A DNA stretch of 64,000 nucleotides from Thermoleophilia bacterium. Its GTDB lineage: Bacteria > Actinomycetota > Thermoleophilia > Solirubrobacterales > 70-9. The notes beneath the pieces are model-generated. The model did not search any database, was not told where the DNA came from, and worked only from the letters and a program-made list of their open reading frames with translations. The stretch covers positions 62,001 to 126,000 of the forward strand of contig JAENWT010000005.1 of NCBI GenBank assembly GCA_016650125.1, given 5' to 3'. A program made the position numbers and the translations under genes. Shown piece after piece: positions 26,196 through 35,851 of the stretch (its first letter is position 1; each line of letters starts with the position of its first letter).

Positions 26196-29012
26196 ATGTC
26201 TAAAGTAGTAACCGAGTCACCCCGCGTCAACAAGAAGGGCGTCGTCGTCGAACGGCGGCTCACCCGCGAAGGCGTCCACCCCTTCGATGAAATCGAGTGG
26301 GAACTGCGCGACGCCATCATCGGCGATCCCGCGAAGCCCGCCTTCGAGCAGCGGGGGGTCGAATTCCCGCGCGCCTGGTCTCAGAACGCGACCAACATCG
26401 TCGCCCAGAAGTACTTCCGCGGCCAGCTCGGCACGGACAAGCGTGAGAATTCGGTCAAGCAGATGATCGGCCGCGTCGCCGGCACGATCGCCGGCTGGGG
26501 CAAGGAAGGCGGATATTTCGCCTCCGACGCCGACGGCGATGCCTTCGAGGCCGAGCTCACCGCAATCCTGCTCCACCAGGAAGCCGCCTTCAACTCGCCG
26601 GTCTGGTTCAACGTCGGTTTCGAAGAGACGCCGCAGTGCTCGGCCTGCTTCATCCTCAGCGTCGAGGACACGATGGAATCGATCCTCGGCTGGAACACCA
26701 AGGAAGGCAACATCTTCCGCGGCGGCTCCGGCTCCGGCATCAACCTCTCCAACATCCGCGGCTCGATGGAGCCGCTGAAGAAGGGCGGTACCGCTTCCGG
26801 TCCGGTCAGCTTCATGCGAGGCGCCGACTCCTGGGCCGGCACGATCAAGTCCGGCGGCAAGACCCGCCGCGCAGCCAAGATGGTCGTGCTGGATGTTGAT
26901 CATCCGGACATAGAGCACTTCATCCGCTGCAAGGCCGACGAAGAGAAGAAGGCGGGGGCACTCCGCGACGCCGGCTTCGACATGTCGATCGACGGCGAGG
27001 GCTTCACCTCGATCCAGTACCAGAACGCCAACAACTCGGTCCGCGTCTCCGACGAGTTCATGGAGGCCTGCCGCGACGACGCCGAATGGAACCTGCTTGC
27101 CCGGACCACTGGCGAATCGGTCAAGACCCTGCCGGCCCGCGACCTGATGAACCAGATCGCGAAAGCCGCCTGGGATTGCGCCGACCCGGGCATGCAGTAC
27201 GACACGATCATCAACCGCTGGCACACCTGCCCCGAATCGGGCCGGATCAACGCCTCGAATCCCTGTTCCGAGTACATGCACGTCGACAATTCGGCCTGCA
27301 ACCTGGCTTCGATCAACCTGATGAAGTTCCGCCGCGAGGACGGCAGTTTCGACACCGACGGCTTCAGCGCCGTGGTCGACACCGTCTTCCTGGCCCAGGA
27401 GATCGCGGTCGGCTTCTCGAGCTACCCGACGGAGGAGATTGGCGTCAACGCCAATGCCTTCCGCCAGCTCGGACTCGGTTACGCCAACCTCGGAGCCCTG
27501 CTGATGTCGAACGGCATGCCGTACGACTCGGACGAAGGCCGGAACGTCGCCGCGGCGATCACCGCCCTGATGACCGGTCGTGCCTACCGGCGCTCGGCCG
27601 AAGTCTCGGCCGCCATGGGCCCGTACGAGAAGTACGAGATGAACCGTGAGCCGCACAACAAGGTGATGCGCATGCACCGTGACGCGTCCCACGAGATCGA
27701 TTCGGCCGGAGTCCACGACGAGCTGATGGACGCGGCCCAGGCCGAATGGGACGTCGCGGTCGCCACCGGCGAGCAGCATGGTTACCGCAACGCCCAGGCG
27801 ACGGTTCTGGCCCCGACCGGCACGATCAGCTTCCTGATGGACTGCGACACGACCGGCATCGAGCCGGACTTCTCGCTGGTCAAGTTCAAGGAGCTGGTCG
27901 GCGGCGGCAACATGACCATCGTCAACAAGTCGGTGCCGATGGCTCTGCGCAACCTCAAGTATTCGGAAGCCGAGATCGCCCAGATCGAAGCCCACATCAA
28001 CGAGAACAACACGATCGTCGGAGCTCCCGGACTCAAGCAGGAGCACCTCGAGATCTTCGACGTCGCGGTCGGTGAGCGGGCCATCTCGCACATGGGCCAC
28101 ATCGACATGATGTCGGCGACCCAGCCGTTCCTCTCGGGAGCGATCTCGAAGACCGTCAACATGCCGAGCACGGCGACGGTCGAGGACATCGCCGAGGCTT
28201 ACACCCGCGGCTGGGAAGGCGGCCTCAAGGCGCTCGCGATCTACCGCGACGGCTCGAAGACCGCCCAGGCGCTGCGCACCGATGCCCAGGACGAGAAGAA
28301 GGAGCCGGCCGGCGAGACCTCCGGCGCTCCCGAGGTCCCGGCGCGTCACCGCATGCCGAAGACCCGCCAGTCGGTCACCCACAAGTTCTCGGTCGGCGGG
28401 CACGAGGGCTACATCACGGCCGGCAAGTACAGCGACGATTCGGTCGGGGAGATCTTCCTGACCGACATCGGCAAGGAAGGATCGACGATGCGGGGCATGA
28501 TGAATGCCTTCGCCACGGCGATCTCACTCGGCCTCCAGTACGGGGTGCCGCTCGAGGTGTTCGTCAACAAGTTCAGCTACATGCGGTTCGACCCGGAAGG
28601 CATCACCGGCAACCCGGAGATCCCCTTCGCCAAGTCGATGCCGGACTACATCATGCGCTGGCTCGCCTCGCAGTTCATCGATGACCCCGACTTCCTCGAG
28701 GAGCAGGGCATCATGACCCAGGAGGTTCGCAACCGCAAAGAGGCCGAGAACACCGGTATCAACCTGGAGAACGGCTCGGGCAACGGCAGCGGAAACAGCG
28801 ATCACGCCGAGCCGACCGCGGACACCGGCGGAAGCGCGATGCCGGCAGGAGCCGCACTTACTGAGGACGTCCCGGTGGTCCCGGCCAAACTCCACGTCAC
28901 CAAGGGAGCCGCGGAACTCGGTCCGGCGTGTGACCAATGCGGAGGCATGATGCAGCGGACGGGCAGCTGTTACACCTGCTCGTCATGCGGCAACAACACC
29001 GGCTGCGGCTGA
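26196..29012 (+). CDS. nrdJ: Vitamin B12-dependent (class II) ribonucleoside-diphosphate reductase
   Basis: 938 residues. A good ribosome site (GAGGAGAG) precedes ATG 26196. Catalytic-domain motifs include GGSGSGINLSNIR, NPCSEYMHVDNSACNLASINL (active-site Cys and Asn-Cys-Glu triad), and PTGTISFLMDCDTTGIEP. The C-terminal CDQCGGMMQRTGSCYTCSSC segment is the zinc/redox tail that re-reduces the active site. Uses adenosylcobalamin to make deoxyribonucleotides without oxygen dependence. Coupled with NrdR upstream and followed by a strong terminator. No cobalamin riboswitch fits in the 71-nt gap. Confidence 0.96.
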   Translation: MSKVVTESPRVNKKGVVVERRLTREGVHPFDEIEWELRDAIIGDPAKPAFEQRGVEFPRAWSQNATNIVAQKYFRGQLGTDKRENSVKQMIGRVAGTIAGWGKEGGYFASDADGDAFEAELTAILLHQEAAFNSPVWFNVGFEETPQCSACFILSVEDTMESILGWNTKEGNIFRGGSGSGINLSNIRGSMEPLKKGGTASGPVSFMRGADSWAGTIKSGGKTRRAAKMVVLDVDHPDIEHFIRCKADEEKKAGALRDAGFDMSIDGEGFTSIQYQNANNSVRVSDEFMEACRDDAEWNLLARTTGESVKTLPARDLMNQIAKAAWDCADPGMQYDTIINRWHTCPESGRINASNPCSEYMHVDNSACNLASINLMKFRREDGSFDTDGFSAVVDTVFLAQEIAVGFSSYPTEEIGVNANAFRQLGLGYANLGALLMSNGMPYDSDEGRNVAAAITALMTGRAYRRSAEVSAAMGPYEKYEMNREPHNKVMRMHRDASHEIDSAGVHDELMDAAQAEWDVAVATGEQHGYRNAQATVLAPTGTISFLMDCDTTGIEPDFSLVKFKELVGGGNMTIVNKSVPMALRNLKYSEAEIAQIEAHINENNTIVGAPGLKQEHLEIFDVAVGERAISHMGHIDMMSATQPFLSGAISKTVNMPSTATVEDIAEAYTRGWEGGLKALAIYRDGSKTAQALRTDAQDEKKEPAGETSGAPEVPARHRMPKTRQSVTHKFSVGGHEGYITAGKYSDDSVGEIFLTDIGKEGSTMRGMMNAFATAISLGLQYGVPLEVFVNKFSYMRFDPEGITGNPEIPFAKSMPDYIMRWLASQFIDDPDFLEEQGIMTQEVRNRKEAENTGINLENGSGNGSGNSDHAEPTADTGGSAMPAGAALTEDVPVVPAKLHVTKGAAELGPACDQCGGMMQRTGSCYTCSSCGNNTGCG

Positions 29013-29107: not shown

Positions 29108-29675
29108 ATGGGTCCCGCCAGACCGGTTCCTTCACCAGGTCGATCGCTCATCGCCGCAATGGTGCTGACAGGACTCTGCTTTGCATTCCTCGTCTTCGCG
29201 ACGCTGCGATCCGACAGCAGCCTGCTGATCGACACCTCCTACTACGGCGTCATGGTTCTTGCCGTCGGCCTCGTTGCTGCGAGGGTCCTCTCCACGTCGG
29301 TCGAGCGCGGAGCCTGGGTCCTCATGACTCTCGTCCTGGTTTGCGATCTGGCCGCCGACCTGACGTGGACCTATCTCGACCTGCCCTTCCCCTCGGTCGC
29401 CGATGCCCTCTGGCTAGCCTCTTACGTCTTCCTGTTCGGCGCGCTGATCCTGCTCGGCCGGGACCGGCTGGGCCGGACCGGAAAGGCCATCTGGCTTGAC
29501 GGCATCATCGTCACACTGACCTTGTCCTCCCTGGGGGCCGCCCTGATACTGCCGGCAGTTCGACCCCGACGTGGTGAAGGTTCTGATCGACGTACTGAAC
29601 GAGGAACCCGCCGACGGCCCACCGGGTAGCGACCCGATCACGATAGCGAGCGACAGTTCATCCCGAAGCGGCTGA
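29108..29675 (+). pseudogene. Deleted cyclic-di-GMP signalling gene: membrane N-terminus joined to HD-GYP-like tail
   Basis: From ATG 29108 about 150 residues encode five or more membrane helices (LIAAMVLTGLCFAFLVFAT, then WLDGIIVTLTLSSLGAAL), the sensor part found before GGDEF/HD-GYP domains in this group. At about 29550 the frame turns into Arg-rich nonsense. In the next frame (from 29556) the sequence reads QFDPDVVKVLIDVLNEEP and stops at 29675, which is how HD-GYP domains end (FDPxVV-x-AL). The signalling domains in between are missing. I infer a large internal deletion with a frameshift at the junction. Confidence 0.6.
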
Positions 29676-30045: not shown

Positions 30046-30084
30046 GTACCACTATATCGCTATACAGCTAATTAGTGGTACAAT
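30046..30084 (+). promoter_or_regulatory. Operator and promoter of the ArsR-led operon
   Basis: GTACCACTA (30046-30054) and TAGTGGTAC (30073-30081) are perfect inverted arms separated by 18 nt, with CTATA repeats and CTAATTAG between. The right arm overlaps a -10 TACAAT (30079-30084), which lies 6 nt before ATG 30091. Arrangement fits repression by the dimeric ArsR-family protein encoded next, from a leaderless transcript. Confidence 0.65.
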
Positions 30085-30090
30085 GTCTCC

Positions 30091-30432
30091 ATGGACATGC
30101 CAAGACCCCTTCCCGAACCACTTGTTGAACTGATTGCCCAGCGCTTCCGCGTCATCGGAGAGTCAATGCGCATCCGCCTCCTCGACACCCTTCGCGATGG
30201 CGAGATGACCGTCAGCGAGCTCGTTGGCACACTCGGAGGCACGCAGCAGAACGTCTCCAAGCACCTGGGCGTCCTGCATCAGGCGGGGATCGTGAATCGC
30301 CGCAAGGACGGAACGTTCGTCAGGTACAGCATCGGCGACGAAACGATCTTCGCCCTTTGCGACCTGGTCTGCGGCGGCCTCCGCGATCAGGTGTCCGAGC
30401 TTGACCAGATCCTGAGTTCGGGTGCCGCATGA
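30091..30432 (+). CDS. ArsR-family transcriptional regulator with paired Cys in helix 5
   Basis: 113 residues. Winged helix with MRIRLLDTLRDGEMTVSELV and recognition helix TQQNVSKHLGVLHQAGIV; the wing is RRKDGTFVRYSI. Cys90 and Cys94 (ALCDLVCGG) in the C-terminal helix are candidate metal or thiol sensors; the classical alpha-3 ELCVCDL motif of ArsR is absent. It heads a five-gene operon (DUF2892, MMPL, OsmC, AhpD-like) behind a palindromic operator, so it probably represses that operon until a redox or metal signal is sensed. Confidence 0.9.
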   Translation: MDMPRPLPEPLVELIAQRFRVIGESMRIRLLDTLRDGEMTVSELVGTLGGTQQNVSKHLGVLHQAGIVNRRKDGTFVRYSIGDETIFALCDLVCGGLRDQVSELDQILSSGAA

Positions 30433-30689
30433 GCGCCCCGGAAGCATCGTGCTCGAGCCGCAAGAGCGGATGGACGCTTGAACGCGTGTTGTTCGCCATG
30501 GCCGGAACGATGACGCTGATCAGCGTCCTTCTGGTCGCCCTGATCTCGCCCTGGTTTCTGCTGCTCACCGCTTTCGTGGGCATCAACCAGTGGCTCTTCG
30601 TCGTCTTCGGTGCCTGCCCCGCATCACTGATCCTCGGCCGGCTCTTCGGCCTGCGCTCGGCCATCAGCCCCCAGGAAAATGCCCGATGA
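30429..30689 (+). CDS. DUF2892 (YgaP-like) two-helix membrane protein
   Basis: 86 residues with two membrane helices (about 20-40 and 44-66). The core TLERVLFAMAGTMTLISVLL ... NQWLFVVFGACPASLIL matches DUF2892, the membrane part of YgaP rhodanese. The conserved FGxCPAS motif includes a Cys. It overlaps arsR-like by ATGA and the MMPL gene downstream. No rhodanese domain is attached. Confidence 0.85.
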   Translation: MSAPEASCSSRKSGWTLERVLFAMAGTMTLISVLLVALISPWFLLLTAFVGINQWLFVVFGACPASLILGRLFGLRSAISPQENAR

Positions 30690-32809
30690 GCGAAGCCACG
30701 AACGGTAACTACGGTCTGATCGGTCGGCTCGGCCACTACACGGCAACTCATTTCCGCGTGGTCCTGATCGCCTGGATCGTGATCGCCCTCGGGCTCGGAT
30801 TCTTCGCACCGCGTGTCGAGACCGCGCTCTCGGGCGCCGGCTGGGAGGCCACCGGCTCCGAGTCGGTCGACGTACGACAGATGATCGACCAGAACTTCCA
30901 GGGCCTCTCCTCGAGCGCCCTCATGGTCGTCATCCACTCCCCGGACAAGACCTTCAACGACCCGGCGATCAAGCGCACGATCGCCCAGACGGAGTCCACC
31001 CTCAAGGCTGACTCACGGGTGAGCACCGTCGTTCCCCCGCAACCCGGGGTTTCGATCTCGAAGGACGGGCACACTGTGATCGTGCAGGCCGGAGCTGCCG
31101 CCGACTCGAACACGATGGTCCGCGCCGCCGACGACCTGAAGGTCGAGCTTCGGGACCTCCAGACCGAGGGCGTGGAAGTCTCACTGACCGGTGCCAGTGG
31201 CATGTGGTCGGACTTCAACACCGCCAACCGCGAGGCGATGATGAAGAGCGAGCTGATCTCCTGGCCGGTGACCCTGATCATCCTCGTGCTGGCCTTCGGC
31301 TCGCTGGTCGCCGCCGGCCTTCCGCTGATGCTCACCATCATCGGGCTGGTGGCCTCGGCCGGATCGCTCTATCTCGGAACCCAGATCCTCGACATCTCGA
31401 TCTGGGCGATGAACTTCGCGCTCATGTTCGCGCTTGCGCTCGGTATCGATTACGCGCTCTTTGTCGTTTACCGCTTTCGCGGCGCCTTATTCGGCTCCGA
31501 GGAGCCGGTCGAGCACGCCATCGCCGAGACAATGGACACCGCAGGCAAGGCCGTGCTGTTCAGCGGCATAACGGTGCTGATTTCACTGACCGCGGTGATG
31601 CTCGTACCATCGCCGGCATTCCGCTCGATGGCGCTCGGGATCATGATCTCGGTCATCTTCATCCTGGCCGCGACGCTCACTCTGCTGCCCGCCGTGCTGG
31701 GCAAGCTCGGCCCGCGGGTGGACAGGCTGGCATTGCCCTGGGTCCACTCGGGCGAACACCGCTCGCCGCGTTTCGCCGCCTGGGCCGAGCGCCTCTGGCG
31801 CCGCCCCCTTGCCTACGGCGCCGTCTCCCTGATCGTCCTGCTCGCGCTCGCCTACCCCGTGCTCGGGCTGGACACCGGTATGCCTTCGATCAAGGTCGTG
31901 CCGACCGAAGACAGTTCCAGGGTCGGCTATGGCCAAGTGCAGGAAGCGTTCGGTACGGGAGCCCCCGGCTCGGTGCAAATCGTCGCCAAGAAAGCCGATT
32001 CGACTTTGGCCGCCACCAAGGCGCAGAACGACCCGGGCGTGGCGCAGGTGATGGCCCCGATGCCCGGAGCCGACGGCACGAAGCTAATCCAGGTCGTGCC
32101 CACCACCGATCCCTCCGATCCCGCTACTGCAGCCACCATCGACCGGCTGCGTACGGACCTGCCCCCGGGCGCGCTCGTCGGGGGAGCCGTGGCCGAGAAC
32201 CACGACCTCGAGTCGCTGCTGTCCTCGAAGACACCGCTCGTAATTGGAGTGGTGCTGATCCTCGGCTTCCTGCTGCTGCTGGTCGCACTACAGGCACCGA
32301 TCATCGCCGCGGTCGGCGTCCTCACCAGCCTGCTCGGCACTGCCGCGGCCTTCGGGGTCGCCCGCCTGATCTTCCAGCAGGGGCACCTCAGCGGCCTGCT
32401 CGGATTCGAATCCCAGGGCTTCCTGGACGCCTGGGGGCCGGTGTTTTTCTTTGCGATGATCTTCGCCATCTCGATGGACTACACCGTGTTCCTGCTGGCG
32501 AGCGCCAAGGAACAATGGGACAAGAACCACGACGCCAAGGAGGCCATGGTCGACGGCCTCGCCCACAGCGGCAGGGTCATCTTCGCCGCGGCCGCCGTGA
32601 TGGTCGCCGTGTTCTTCACCTTCGCCCTTTCCGGCCCCCTGCCGCCAAAGGAGATGGGCGTCATCCTCGGTGTCGCCGTGCTCCTGGACGCATTCCTGGT
32701 CCGGCTGCTCCTGCTGCCCGTGCTCCTGCGCCTGCTGGGTACGCGTGCCTGGTGGCTGCCGAAGTGGCTTCGGCGCATCCTCCCCGACGTGAAATTCGGA
32801 CACGGCTGA
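30686..32809 (+). CDS. MMPL/RND-family transporter
   Basis: 707 residues from ATG 30686, which overlaps the DUF2892 stop (ATGA). Twelve membrane helices in two sets of six with two extracytoplasmic loops: helix 1 (VVLIAWIVIALGLGF), the first RND core (MNFALMFALALGIDYALFVVYRFR, with the Asp-Tyr proton relay) and the second (FFAMIFAISMDYTVFLLASAKE). MMPL proteins export lipids or hydrophobic molecules using proton force. Cargo here is unknown; context with thiol-peroxidase type proteins suggests an oxidised or toxic small molecule. Confidence 0.93.
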   Translation: MSEATNGNYGLIGRLGHYTATHFRVVLIAWIVIALGLGFFAPRVETALSGAGWEATGSESVDVRQMIDQNFQGLSSSALMVVIHSPDKTFNDPAIKRTIAQTESTLKADSRVSTVVPPQPGVSISKDGHTVIVQAGAAADSNTMVRAADDLKVELRDLQTEGVEVSLTGASGMWSDFNTANREAMMKSELISWPVTLIILVLAFGSLVAAGLPLMLTIIGLVASAGSLYLGTQILDISIWAMNFALMFALALGIDYALFVVYRFRGALFGSEEPVEHAIAETMDTAGKAVLFSGITVLISLTAVMLVPSPAFRSMALGIMISVIFILAATLTLLPAVLGKLGPRVDRLALPWVHSGEHRSPRFAAWAERLWRRPLAYGAVSLIVLLALAYPVLGLDTGMPSIKVVPTEDSSRVGYGQVQEAFGTGAPGSVQIVAKKADSTLAATKAQNDPGVAQVMAPMPGADGTKLIQVVPTTDPSDPATAATIDRLRTDLPPGALVGGAVAENHDLESLLSSKTPLVIGVVLILGFLLLLVALQAPIIAAVGVLTSLLGTAAAFGVARLIFQQGHLSGLLGFESQGFLDAWGPVFFFAMIFAISMDYTVFLLASAKEQWDKNHDAKEAMVDGLAHSGRVIFAAAAVMVAVFFTFALSGPLPPKEMGVILGVAVLLDAFLVRLLLLPVLLRLLGTRAWWLPKWLRRILPDVKFGHG

Positions 32810-32840
32810 TGCCGGTCCCGTCACAGAAACCGAGAACAAC

Positions 32841-33266
32841 ATGAGCTTCACCGCCACCGCCAAACCGATCGGCAACTCTCTCAGGCATGAAATCAATGTG
32901 AATGGACGCCACGTGATCGTCACCGACGAGCCCGAGAGCCTTGGCGGCACCGACACCGGGCCGGCGCCCCACGAACTGCTGCCGGCCACCCTCGCTTCCT
33001 GCATCTCCACGACGGTTGCGTTGTACGCGAAGCGCAAGGACTGGGACCTGAACGGCCTGAGCGTGGACGTCACCTACGACAACGAGGCCGAGCCACGGAG
33101 TTTCGACGTGACCCTGCACCTCCCCGACGGACTCACAGAGAATCAGGTGGAGCGCCTTCGCCGAGTCGCCGACACCTGCCCGGTGCGCCGGGCGCTCGAG
33201 GGCGACTTCGTCTTCGACGAGCGAACCGAGGCCGGCGAAGACCAACAGCCCGTCGGCCTCGTGTGA
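32841..33266 (+). CDS. OsmC-family protein
   Basis: 141 residues. Family fold with the reactive Cys pair at Cys54 (ATLASCIS) and Cys113 (ADTCPVRRAL). OsmC/Ohr proteins reduce organic hydroperoxides with these cysteines, whereas YhfA-like members are uncharacterised; the loose first motif puts this one nearer the OsmC/YhfA side. The gene lies 31 nt after the MMPL gene and overlaps the AhpD-like gene by 4 nt. Confidence 0.88.
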   Translation: MSFTATAKPIGNSLRHEINVNGRHVIVTDEPESLGGTDTGPAPHELLPATLASCISTTVALYAKRKDWDLNGLSVDVTYDNEAEPRSFDVTLHLPDGLTENQVERLRRVADTCPVRRALEGDFVFDERTEAGEDQQPVGLV

Positions 33267-33736
33267 ACTTGAGATCCTTTTCCTCACCAGGGGACGCCGT
33301 CTGGAAGGTCGTCGGCGTGCTTCGGAATGGCCGCGCGCTGGGCGACGTTTACCTGCGCGGGCGGCTGACGCCGCGCGAGCGTGAGCACATCATGGTCGCG
33401 GTAAGCAGGGTCAACGCCTGCCAGGGATGCACCTACGTTCATGAGCGCTGGGCCCTGCGGGCCGGCGCGACGCACGAAGAGCTTCGGAATCTGGAGATCG
33501 GCGATCTGAGCGGCCTTGACGACCGCGGTCGCGCCGCCGTCGCATATGCCACCGCCCGGGCCGAGGCCGACTTCCTCGGGACTCATTCCGCCGATGCCGC
33601 GGCCGCATCAGAAAGGCTGACGCCGCGCGAGATAGCCGCCGTCGAGGCGGTCGCCCGAGCTATGGCCCTTGCAAGCCTGACCGTAAACACGGCCGAGTCG
33701 GCCGTGGCCGGCATCAGGCGTCGCTCGCACTCCTGA
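33263..33736 (+). CDS. AhpD-like carboxymuconolactone-decarboxylase-fold protein
   Basis: 157 residues from GTG 33263, overlapping the osmC-like stop (GTGA). It has the AhpD signature Glu-x(n)-C-x-x-C-x3-H: Cys53, Cys56 and His60 in NACQGCTYVHERWAL. AhpD-type proteins reduce partner peroxiredoxins or act as alkylhydroperoxidases. As last gene of the ArsR-led operon it could recycle the OsmC-like protein; that pairing is an inference from gene order. Confidence 0.85.
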   Translation: MNLRSFSSPGDAVWKVVGVLRNGRALGDVYLRGRLTPREREHIMVAVSRVNACQGCTYVHERWALRAGATHEELRNLEIGDLSGLDDRGRAAVAYATARAEADFLGTHSADAAAASERLTPREIAAVEAVARAMALASLTVNTAESAVAGIRRRSHS

Positions 33737-33886
33737 GGTTCCCCCGCCGCCTGCGCCTGTTGTCCAGGGCTTCGGATTGCTCGTCCTCTTGTGCTGACGC
33801 ATTCCCGTCGCGGCTTGCCCTTGATGCTATCGTCGTTGGCGGTCGCCTCTGCGGAATGTCGGGGTGGCTGCCAACAGAGCGGGTTC

Positions 33887-35851
33887 GTGGTGAAGTCAGG
33901 GGTCTTACGGGTAGTGATCGCTAAAGCAGTGATCGCTGTCTGTCTGCTGTTCGGTGCCGTGGCCGCCGATGGCGCCGCAGCGTCGACCGGGGACCTCACC
34001 CAGAAAGCCGGCACCGCCGGCTGTATCTCAGAGACCGGAGCGGGACCATGCGTGGATGGGACCGCACTCAGCGATTCGAACGCGGTAACGGTCAGCCCCG
34101 ATGGCAAGAGCGCTTACGTTGCATCCAACACCAGCGACGCGGTCGCGGTTTTCGATCGCACCACCGACGGCACACTTACGCAGAAGGCAGGCACTGCTGG
34201 CTGCATCTCCGAGACGGGTGCCGGTCCGTGCGTCGATGGGACTGCTCTCAATGGTGCCGGCTCGGTGACCGTCAGCCCCGATGGCAAGAATGCCTATGTC
34301 GCGTCCTTCGATAGCAACGCGGTTTCGATTTTTGACCGATCACCGGACGGGACGCTCACCCAGAAGGTCGGCACTGCGGGCTGCATCTCGGAGACCGGCG
34401 CCGGTCCCTGCGTAGACGGGACCGCGCTCAGTACTGCCAGATCAGTCGCAGTCAGCCCCGACGGCAAGAGCGCCTACGTCCTGGGTTTTTCCAGTGACGC
34501 TGTCGCGGTGTTCGACCGCGCCGCGGACGGCACACTTACGCAGAAGGCAGGTACGGCGGGCTGCATCTCGGAGACCGGAGCCGGCCCCTGCGCAGACGGG
34601 ACGGCAATCGCCCACCCGATCGTTGTCACGATCAGTTCCGACGGCAAGAACGCCTACATAGCATCCTCAATGAGCGGAGCCGTTTCGGTGTTCGATCGAG
34701 CTTTGGACGGCACGCTAACCCAGAAATCCGGTAACGCGGGCTGTATTTCCAACACCGGAGCCGGCCCCTGCGCAGACGGGACGGCACTTGGCGGTGCCAA
34801 CTCGGTGTCGATCAGCCCCGACGGCAAGAGCGCCTACGCCTCGTCTTTGCTCAGCGATGCTGTGGTGGTGTTCGATCGAGCGGCGGATGGCGAGTTGACC
34901 CAAAAGGCTGGTACGACGGGCTGCTTCTCTGACACCGGAGCTGGACCCTGCTCCGATGGGACGGCACTCGTGGGCGCCACCTCGGTGGCGGTCAGCCCCG
35001 ACGGCAATAGCGCCTACGTTACGGCCTCTGGGAGCTACTCGGTGGCGGAGTTTGATCGCGCCATGGACGGCAGCTTGACTCAGAAGCCCGGGACGGCGGG
35101 CTGCATCTCGGAGACGGGCGCCGGTCCTTGCGGTGACGGAACGGCAATCGCCTACCCCAACTCGGTGGCGGTCAGCCCCGATGGCAGGAACGCCTACGTC
35201 GTATCCCTCATCAGCGATGCCGTCGCCGTCTTCGATCGCGAGCCGGCACCCTCCGGCATCAAGGTCGAGCCTCTGAGCCTCGGATTCGGCACCGTAGAGG
35301 TCGGTCGGCAGAGCGCGACCAAGAGCTTCACGGTGAAGAGCATCGGAACGATCCCGTTGTCTCTCGGAACGATCTCATCCGCGGGTACCAACCCGGCTCA
35401 GTTTTCGGTCGATGCCGACACCTGCTCATCCAGGACACTTCCGGTGAACGCAACCTGTACGGCGACGGTGACGTTCACGCCCTCCAGCGCAGGTTCGAAG
35501 ACCGCCAACCTGAAAGTCATGAACGACTCACCCACCGGAGCCGTTTCAGTGGCGCTGAGCGGCATCGGAAAGGCCAAGTCGGCACCGAAGACCACCTTCA
35601 AGCAGCGACCGAAGAAGAAGTACGTGACCAGGAAGAGGGCCGTCAGGAAGATCAGGGTCGCGTTCAAGAGCAACCAGGCCGGCGCAAAGTTCAAATGCAG
35701 GCTCGACCGCAAGAAGTTCAGGAAATGCAAGTCGCCGCACTTCCTGAAAAAGGTCAAGTCCGGCAGGCACGTGTTCAAGGTCAAGGCCAGCAAGGACGGA
35801 AAGACCGGCAAGCCGGCAGTCACGAAGTTCAGAGTGGTACGCAAGAAGTAG
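33887..35851 (+). CDS. Secreted seven-blade beta-propeller protein with anchor-like and basic C-terminal domains
   Basis: About 654 residues from GTG 33887, chosen since it gives a clean signal peptide (VLRVVIAKAVIAVCLLFGAV, cleavage near DGAAA); GTG 33791 or ATG 33824 are possible. The body is seven tandem repeats of exactly 60 residues, each LTQKxGxxGC-x8-PC-x-DGTA followed by VSPDGxxAYV and VxxFDR. Seven such units fit a closed seven-blade YVTN/lactonase-like propeller, each blade with two Cys for a disulfide. Then a choice-of-anchor/HYDIN-type Ig domain (LGFGTVEVGRQSATKSF), and a Lys/Arg-rich module with two Cys (AKFKCRLDRKKFRKC) typical of Solirubrobacterales surface proteins. Extracellular; ligand unknown. 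Confidence 0.8.
   Translation: MVKSGVLRVVIAKAVIAVCLLFGAVAADGAAASTGDLTQKAGTAGCISETGAGPCVDGTALSDSNAVTVSPDGKSAYVASNTSDAVAVFDRTTDGTLTQKAGTAGCISETGAGPCVDGTALNGAGSVTVSPDGKNAYVASFDSNAVSIFDRSPDGTLTQKVGTAGCISETGAGPCVDGTALSTARSVAVSPDGKSAYVLGFSSDAVAVFDRAADGTLTQKAGTAGCISETGAGPCADGTAIAHPIVVTISSDGKNAYIASSMSGAVSVFDRALDGTLTQKSGNAGCISNTGAGPCADGTALGGANSVSISPDGKSAYASSLLSDAVVVFDRAADGELTQKAGTTGCFSDTGAGPCSDGTALVGATSVAVSPDGNSAYVTASGSYSVAEFDRAMDGSLTQKPGTAGCISETGAGPCGDGTAIAYPNSVAVSPDGRNAYVVSLISDAVAVFDREPAPSGIKVEPLSLGFGTVEVGRQSATKSFTVKSIGTIPLSLGTISSAGTNPAQFSVDADTCSSRTLPVNATCTATVTFTPSSAGSKTANLKVMNDSPTGAVSVALSGIGKAKSAPKTTFKQRPKKKYVTRKRAVRKIRVAFKSNQAGAKFKCRLDRKKFRKCKSPHFLKKVKSGRHVFKVKASKDGKTGKPAVTKFRVVRKK
33995..35254 (+). 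repeat. Seven tandem 180-nt coding repeats
   Basis: The stretch divides into seven consecutive 180-nt units without a single indel, each encoding one 60-residue propeller blade. Conserved blocks recur at the same phase (ctcacccagaa, ggctgcatctc, gtcagccccgacggcaa). Units differ by scattered substitutions, so the array is old enough to have diverged or is under selection for blade number. Confidence 0.9.

What the first reader, a model, noticed from the sequence alone, without database searches (positions are those of the whole stretch)
30046..33736. ArsR-led DUF2892-MMPL-OsmC-AhpD cassette: a candidate thiol-stress export system
Five genes in one operon (overlaps of 4 nt at three of four junctions), behind a 9-bp inverted repeat over the promoter. 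The ArsR protein has a Cys pair (90, 94) outside the usual site. Two proteins carry redox Cys pairs (OsmC Cys54/113, AhpD Cys53/56), DUF2892 carries one conserved Cys, and MMPL gives export. Together they could sense, detoxify and expel an electrophile, peroxide or persulfide.
Basis: partly seen in the sequence, partly recalled or inferred. Interest (0 to 1): 0.6.

Follow-up and report, generated by a model that had tools for sequence, protein, structure and literature searches.

The report
Sulfur-stress operon with lipid-type exporter
A soil or freshwater actinobacterium carries a conserved gene module in which a cysteine-bearing repressor controls a lipid-type exporter, a small membrane protein and thiol enzymes, and the same DNA switch in its relatives controls sulfur-handling genes, so the module most likely senses and clears excess reactive sulfur, a role not previously reported for this exporter family.

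Summary
The five-gene operon is real: ArsR, YgaP-TM/DUF2892, MMPL, OsmC and AhpD-like, with 4-nt overlaps at three of four junctions and the 9-bp inverted repeat. The exact five-gene set was seen only here. Its core, ArsR-DUF2892-MMPL, is conserved across Thermoleophilia (119 non-redundant MMPL loci: ArsR near 83, DUF2892 near 86; 0 of 56 control loci). OsmC and AhpD fill a variable slot that elsewhere holds rhodanese, persulfide-dioxygenase-type MBL-rhodanese, TauE, SQR, DsrE, thioredoxin or DUF302. In 15 loci a CstR-like CsoR regulator (no copper His) replaces ArsR; the two never co-occur. The family operator is ACAACT-N4-AGTTGT (72/83 promoters match at least 10/12; 0.8 expected). Off-locus copies precede rhodanese, DsrE, glutaredoxin, CMD-DUF302 and ArsR-paralogue genes. 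Every family ArsR has C90-x3-C94, both in helix alpha5; this matches neither the SqrR/BigR pair nor the metal CxC site.

Best reading: a reactive-sulfur (persulfide/sulfane sulfur) derepression system. Export of sulfur by MMPL is inferred only. Sensing chemistry and substrate are untested. New variant of a known kind.

The parts
30046..30081 (.). Operator region: phased 8-bp half-sites ACCACT (30048-30053), weak ATCGCT (30056-30061), ACAGCT (30064-30069) and inverted AGTGGT (30074-30079); core dyad ACAGCT-AATT-AGTGGT at 30064-30079
   Evidence: family consensus ACAACT-N4/12/20-AGTTGT in 72 of 83 promoters at 10/12 or better versus 0.8 expected
30079..30084 (+). Candidate -10 element TACAAT, 6 nt before the ArsR start codon, so the mRNA may be leaderless; it abuts the operator
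   Evidence: read from the sequence; inference, and no sigma-70 site was called
30091..30432 (+). ArsR/SmtB-family repressor, 113 aa, Cys90-x3-Cys94 in helix alpha5 (residues 85-112)
30429..30689 (+). DUF2892 / YgaP-like two-helix membrane protein, 86 aa, conserved Cys63
30686..32809 (+). MMPL (RND superfamily) transporter, 707 aa; Asp-Tyr pairs D255/Y256 and D598/Y599 invariant in 13 orthologues
32841..33266 (+). OsmC-family thiol protein, 141 aa, Cys54/Cys113 kept in relatives
33263..33736 (+). AhpD-like CMD-domain protein, 157 aa, Cys53-x2-Cys56, GTG start

Best explanation
The operon is a reactive-sulfur-species (persulfide / sulfane sulfur) stress module. ArsR binds ACAACT-N4-AGTTGT-type half-sites overlapping its own promoter and represses the operon (operator: shown comparatively; binding and repression: inferred). 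Sulfane sulfur reacts with the paired Cys90/Cys94 in helix alpha5 and releases the DNA (inferred). Derepression yields a constant membrane pair, the two-helix YgaP-type protein (with a membrane Cys) plus an MMPL proton-coupled transporter, which together remove a sulfur-stress product from the cell or its membrane (pairing shown, transport direction and substrate inferred). It also yields a lineage-variable set of sulfane-sulfur or thiol enzymes: here OsmC and an AhpD-like protein, elsewhere rhodanese, MBL-rhodanese (persulfide dioxygenase type), TauE, SQR, DsrE, thioredoxin, glutaredoxin or DUF302.
For: Conserved core: ArsR within 5 kb of 83 and DUF2892 within 5 kb of 86 of 119 MMPL-orthologue loci, and of 0 of 56 control loci. 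At least one of SQR/TauE/MBL-rhodanese/rhodanese/DsrE lies near 37 of 119 loci versus 2 of 56 controls (p about 1e-5); SDR, ABC, MFS, response regulators and acyl-CoA dehydrogenases are not enriched. Regulator exchange: 15 loci carry a CsoR-family regulator, never together with ArsR; all 16 proteins have G or S where copper sensors have His, and the PDB best hit of one is 7mq1. A CsoR-like regulator with PDO, rhodanese and TauE is a proven sulfane-sulfur circuit in Streptomyces coelicolor (PMC7533328). Regulon: perfect operator matches away from the MMPL locus precede rhodanese beside sat-cysC-cysH-sir, ArsR paralogues, DsrE, CMD-DUF302 and glutaredoxin genes. Cys90/Cys94 are in 82 of 82 family ArsRs and in one helix of the model.
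Against: No biochemical or expression data. In the window genome only the MMPL operon shows a convincing operator; its two rhodanese genes lack one, and no MBL-rhodanese enzyme of this type was found near them. About half of the 119 loci have none of the scored accessory genes nearby. A Cys-x3-Cys pair in alpha5 could also bind a metal or As(III). No study linking an MMPL protein with persulfide was found. The neighbourhood HMMs were built from the same loci, and relatedness among genomes was not corrected for.
Confidence: 0.68

Rival explanations
1. Organic-hydroperoxide / oxidative-stress operon: OsmC and AhpD-like proteins are peroxidases, ArsR senses peroxide, and MMPL exports damaged lipids.
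For: OsmC and CMD families include peroxide-reducing enzymes; both keep a Cys pair. In Pseudomonas, OhrR/ohr responds to both organic peroxide and sulfane sulfur (PMC9495516), so the two themes overlap.
Against: OsmC and AhpD occur in a minority of related operons, where the slot otherwise holds sulfane-sulfur genes. The OsmC protein is far below the curated Ohr cut-off (22.5 vs 88.85 bits). The regulon holds rhodanese and DsrE.
Confidence: 0.14
2. Metal or metalloid resistance operon: Cys90/Cys94 bind As(III), Cd or Zn, and the MMPL/DUF2892 pair protects the envelope.
For: ArsR/SmtB family match. Atypical As(III) sensors use Cys ligands from alpha5 (PMC10509353). Some plasmid relatives lie near cation P-type ATPases or alkylmercury lyase.
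Against: Only two Cys per protomer, no alpha3 CxC site, and the alpha5 As(III) sensors use three Cys. The operons' accessory families are sulfur genes, and off-locus operators precede rhodanese, DsrE, glutaredoxin, CMD-DUF302 and ArsR-paralogue genes rather than metal exporters. The replacing CsoR-type regulators lack the copper His.
Confidence: 0.08
3. ArsR senses reactive sulfur, but MMPL/DUF2892 do not move sulfur: MMPL exports a lipid or other hydrophobic molecule that adapts the envelope or respiration to sulfide.
For: Closest solved relatives of MMPL are MmpL3 (trehalose monomycolate) and MmpL4/MmpL5 (siderophore) exporters. MMPL itself has no Cys.
Against: Recurrent pairing with a YgaP-type Cys membrane protein, whose E. 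coli homologue is fused to a rhodanese, points to sulfur at the membrane.
Confidence: 0.35

Closest known systems
Streptomyces coelicolor ScCsoR-PDO-rhodanese-TauE sulfane-sulfur circuit (PMC7533328)
   Same: A thiol repressor controls persulfide dioxygenase, rhodanese and TauE, the same enzyme set that accompanies many relatives of this operon; in 15 related loci the regulator is a CsoR-family protein without the copper His.
   Different: Here the regulator is an ArsR with a different operator; the constant genes are MMPL and DUF2892, not reported in that circuit; the window copy has OsmC and AhpD instead of PDO and TauE.
E. coli ygaVP (ArsR YgaV + rhodanese-TM YgaP) and SqrR/BigR persulfide sensors (PMC9774250, PMC10509353)
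   Same: An ArsR repressor leads an operon that includes a YgaP-type membrane segment with a conserved Cys; small auto-regulated operon.
   Different: YgaV/SqrR use Cys in alpha2 and alpha5 (Cys31/Cys98 in YgaV) and SqrR sites are ATTC-N8-GAAT. Here both Cys are in alpha5 four residues apart, Asp stands at the alpha2 position, the operator is ACAACT-N4-AGTTGT, DUF2892 has no rhodanese domain, and an MMPL transporter follows.
Arthrobacter plasmid SUL module (PMC6305408) and Bacillus licheniformis yrkD cluster (PMC9918477)
   Same: CsoR/CstR-type regulator with sulfur dioxygenase, rhodanese, TauE, DsrE, thioredoxin or DUF302: the same accessory repertoire.
   Different: No MMPL/DUF2892 pair is described in them (SUL lists an MFS transporter).
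MmpL3 and MmpL4/5 (RND/MMPL exporters)
   Same: MMPL fold family; Asp-Tyr pairs in the transmembrane repeats are kept.
   Different: A separate orthologue clade (61-79% identity within the order versus 46% or less for the others), shorter (707 aa), tied to DUF2892 and sulfur genes.

Membership tests
SqrR/BigR/YgaV-type ArsR persulfide sensors (SSN cluster 4 of PMC10509353) | Cys in alpha2 plus Cys in alpha5 | tested here: not met
   Only Cys90 and Cys94, both in alpha5; Asp32 stands near YgaV Cys31
SqrR/BigR/YgaV-type ArsR persulfide sensors (SSN cluster 4 of PMC10509353) | Controls at least one sulfide/sulfane-sulfur metabolism gene | tested here: met
   Comparative: operators precede rhodanese, DsrE and operons with MBL-rhodanese/TauE in relatives; not shown in the window genome
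SqrR/BigR/YgaV-type ArsR persulfide sensors (SSN cluster 4 of PMC10509353) | SqrR-type operator ATTC-N8-GAAT | tested here: not met
   Family operator is ACAACT-N4-AGTTGT
SqrR/BigR/YgaV-type ArsR persulfide sensors (SSN cluster 4 of PMC10509353) | Persulfide forms a polysulfide bridge and releases DNA | not testable with these tools
   Needs protein chemistry
ArsR metal/metalloid sensors | alpha3 CxC site, or three Cys in alpha5 for atypical As(III) sensors | tested here: not met
   No Cys before residue 90; two Cys in all; compared with the description in PMC10509353
CstR-type regulators (the CsoR-family proteins in related loci, not in the window) | CsoR fold with the Cys pair but without the copper-ligand His four residues before the second Cys | tested here: met
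   16 of 16 proteins have G or S at that position; best PDB hit 7mq1, which I recall as pneumococcal CstR; the paper itself was not held
MMPL transporters (PF03176) | MMPL domain over curated cut-off, two repeats, conserved Asp-Tyr pairs | tested here: met
   246.4 bits vs 20.5; D255/Y256 and D598/Y599 invariant
YgaP-like TM domain (PF11127, DUF2892) | Profile match over the gathering score | tested here: inconclusive
   20.1 bits vs 25.3; aligns with YgaP incl. the membrane Cys; homologues are annotated DUF2892/YgaP-like
Ohr/OsmC peroxiredoxins | Curated Ohr or OsmC equivalog score | tested here: not met
   OsmC Pfam domain met, but Ohr 22.5 vs 88.85 bits; peroxidase activity untested
AhpD / CMD | CMD domain and Cys-x2-Cys | tested here: met
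   43.6 vs 23 bits; ahpD_dom 41.9 vs 27.8; Cys53/Cys56. The full AhpD proton-relay residue set was not tested

The most novel reading that the evidence does not exclude
A dedicated bacterial exporter of sulfane sulfur: the MMPL transporter with its YgaP-type Cys subunit removes persulfidated thiols, polysulfide or membrane-dissolved S0 from the cell, switched on by a new class of ArsR persulfide sensor that uses a Cys-x3-Cys dithiol within helix alpha5.
Probability: 0.33. Interest if true: 0.85.

Novelty: new variant of a known kind. Interest (0 to 1): 0.62.

Why it matters
Persulfide-sensing regulons were known to control enzymes and a sulfite exporter; how cells handle sulfane sulfur in or across the membrane is open. 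This work ties a large, conserved and uncharacterised MMPL clade to that stress. It gives an exact operator and regulon, and points to an ArsR dithiol geometry outside the group that, per PMC10509353, holds all known ArsR persulfide sensors. Each step can be tested in cultured Patulibacter, Conexibacter or Nocardioides.

Tried and rejected
Literature searches for MMPL with OsmC, DUF2892, ArsR or persulfide found nothing describing this module; PMC6305408 holds MMPL and a SUL module, but as separate modules. Operator search in the window genome with 2 mismatches gave 24 sites against 11 for the reversed control pattern; apart from the operon's own site, those examined lay inside coding sequence and looked like chance. 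The rhodanese that carries the operator in three genomes of the same genus has no close orthologue in the window genome, and the window genome's rhodanese and TauE regions have no operator. CRISPR-regulator hits of ArsR in PADLOC (Csa3) are generic winged-helix matches and were rejected. The sigma-70 promoter scan found nothing.

Full report
OBSERVATION. The operon is as described. The window lies on a contig of a 2.8-Mb draft genome. The closest named loci are Solirubrobacterales/Thermoleophilia MAGs (two records titled Bifidobacterium breve are probably mislabelled). The five proteins are: ArsR (HTH_5 39.8 bits; Cys90 and Cys94 only), an 86-aa two-helix protein resembling the YgaP membrane domain (sub-threshold PF11127), MMPL (246 bits), OsmC (57 bits) and a CMD/AhpD-like protein (44 bits).

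CONSERVATION. MMPL orthologues form a clear clade in the order: 61-79% identity, against at most 46% for the rest. DUF2892 relatives occur in 69 of 201 genomes of the order, with MMPL next to most of those mapped. I collected 119 non-redundant MMPL-orthologue loci. Two kinds of control came from the same order: 16 paralogous-MMPL loci and 40 arbitrary stretches. Within 5 kb: ArsR 83 vs 0, DUF2892 86 vs 0, DUF302 18 vs 0, TauE 18 vs 0, rhodanese 17 vs 0, MBL-rhodanese 16 vs 0, CsoR-family 15 vs 0, SQR 17 vs 2, OsmC (two kinds) 15 vs 0, thioredoxin 11 vs 0, CMD 9 vs 0, DsrE 5 vs 0. SDR, ABC, MFS, response-regulator and acyl-CoA dehydrogenase families show no enrichment. DUF2892 is probably undercounted, being short and overlapping. 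The exact five-gene set was seen only in the window; gene maps show the core ArsR-DUF2892-MMPL followed or flanked by alternative modules: OsmC; CMD-DUF302; rhodanese, MBL-rhodanese, TauE; SQR-DsrE; thioredoxin.

REGULATOR. Across the family, Cys90-x3-Cys94 is present in 82 of 82 ArsRs; the three non-matching proteins in that set were other ArsRs. The AlphaFold2 model (pLDDT 91.8) puts both in helix alpha5 (85-112), one turn apart; the fold is ArsR/SmtB, nearest Rv0081, HlyU, CadC and SmtB. By PMC10509353 all known ArsR persulfide sensors have Cys in alpha2 and alpha5, H2O2-sensing RexT has two Cys in alpha3, and atypical As(III) sensors have trigonal Cys in alpha5. The present family fits none of these exactly. 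In alignment with E. coli YgaV, Asp32 falls near YgaV Cys31, and an ungapped reading by eye puts Cys98 one turn beyond Cys94. In 15 loci (Rhodococcus, Nocardia, Tsukamurella, Nocardioides, Kitasatospora and others) a CsoR-family regulator takes its place; no locus has both. All 16 of those proteins lack the copper-ligand His, as CstR does; the best PDB hits are 7mq1-7mq3. My identification of those entries as pneumococcal CstR is from memory.

OPERATOR AND REGULON. Gapped-dyad counting in 83 ArsR upstream regions found ACAACT-N4-AGTTGT, with half-sites phased by 8 bp, so that spacers of 4, 12 and 20 all occur. 72 of 83 promoters match at 10 of 12 or better against 0.8 expected in dinucleotide shuffles. 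A perfect-match search of 121 genomes of the order and 399 of the class gave about 41 distinct sites, with very few hits of the reversed control pattern. By my own tally from the coordinates, about 29 lie at ArsR/DUF2892/MMPL loci (one of them inside the 5' end of an MMPL gene). Off-locus sites lie: in front of a rhodanese at the end of a sir-cysH-sat-cysC cluster (three genomes of the window's genus); between an ArsR paralogue and a rhodanese; before another ArsR paralogue; before DsrE genes (two); before CMD-DUF302 pairs (two, which ties the AhpD-like family to the regulon); before glutaredoxin-like genes (two); and between an ArsR and a bona fide YgaP-like_TM gene (53 bits; counted above among the ArsR loci). 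One site, at a contig edge, is unassigned.

MECHANISM. The parsimonious reading is an auto-regulated, dithiol-based ArsR repressor of sulfane-sulfur homeostasis. Shown comparatively: operator, core gene set, regulator exchange, regulon content. Inferred: repression, persulfide as inducer, chemistry at Cys90/94, and transport by MMPL. The operator abuts a plausible -10 (TACAAT, 30079-30084) 6 nt before the start codon, so bound repressor would block RNA polymerase and the mRNA may be leaderless (inference). DUF2892 Cys63 aligns with YgaP Cys159, which lies in the predicted second membrane helix (PMC3551814). YgaP carries a cytoplasmic rhodanese domain and its operon is derepressed by sulfide through YgaV (PMC9774250), which suggests that the YgaP-type helix pair handles sulfane sulfur at the membrane. 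MMPL keeps the Asp-Tyr pairs that I recall as the proton relay of MmpL3. The window genome's only detected operator-bearing unit is this operon, so OsmC and the AhpD-like protein would be its enzymatic arm; whether they act on persulfides or peroxides is open.

RIVALS. Peroxide stress rests only on the OsmC/AhpD family names, and these two are the replaceable part of the operon. Metal sensing is not excluded by the Cys pair but has no support in the regulon. A lipid-export role for MMPL under sulfide stress is the strongest alternative to sulfur export and differs from the best explanation only in the transporter's substrate; its stated confidence therefore overlaps with that of the best explanation.

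LIMITS. Gene calls in the neighbourhood survey are heuristic; HMMs were built from the loci themselves; loci are phylogenetically related, so p values are indicative; CstR chemistry and all functions are transferred from other organisms; absence from the literature refers to the held open-access library only.

Noticed in passing
L078, L084: Two metagenome contigs titled Bifidobacterium breve carry 75-78% identical MMPL operons and look like Thermoleophilia; the titles are probably wrong.
   Followed up: no
window 33791-35851: 686-aa secreted-looking beta-propeller (Pfam Lactonase) made of near-identical repeats around 'GTAGCISETGAGPC(V/A/S/G)DGTA', with an Ig-like domain and a basic C-terminus, directly downstream of the operon.
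   Followed up: no
window 29108-29629: 173-aa membrane-like ORF without any Pfam match between a ribonucleotide-reductase-like gene (26196-29012) and the operon; its C-terminus looks truncated, possibly a gene remnant.
   Followed up: no
L267, L268, L269 (same genus as the window): A rhodanese with the perfect ArsR operator sits at the end of a sir-cysH-sat-cysC sulfate-assimilation cluster; the window genome lacks a close orthologue of this rhodanese.
   Followed up: partly
L295 4084-4588, L299 3883-4378: CMD-DUF302 gene pairs stand alone under the perfect operator; DUF302 is a recurrent, uncharacterised companion of sulfane-sulfur genes.
   Followed up: partly
L034, L035, L036, L037: On Rhodococcus, Nocardia and Tsukamurella plasmids the same MMPL clade travels with CstR-like regulators, DUF302, TauE and MBL-rhodanese, in some cases beside metal-resistance genes, so the module is mobile.
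   Followed up: partly
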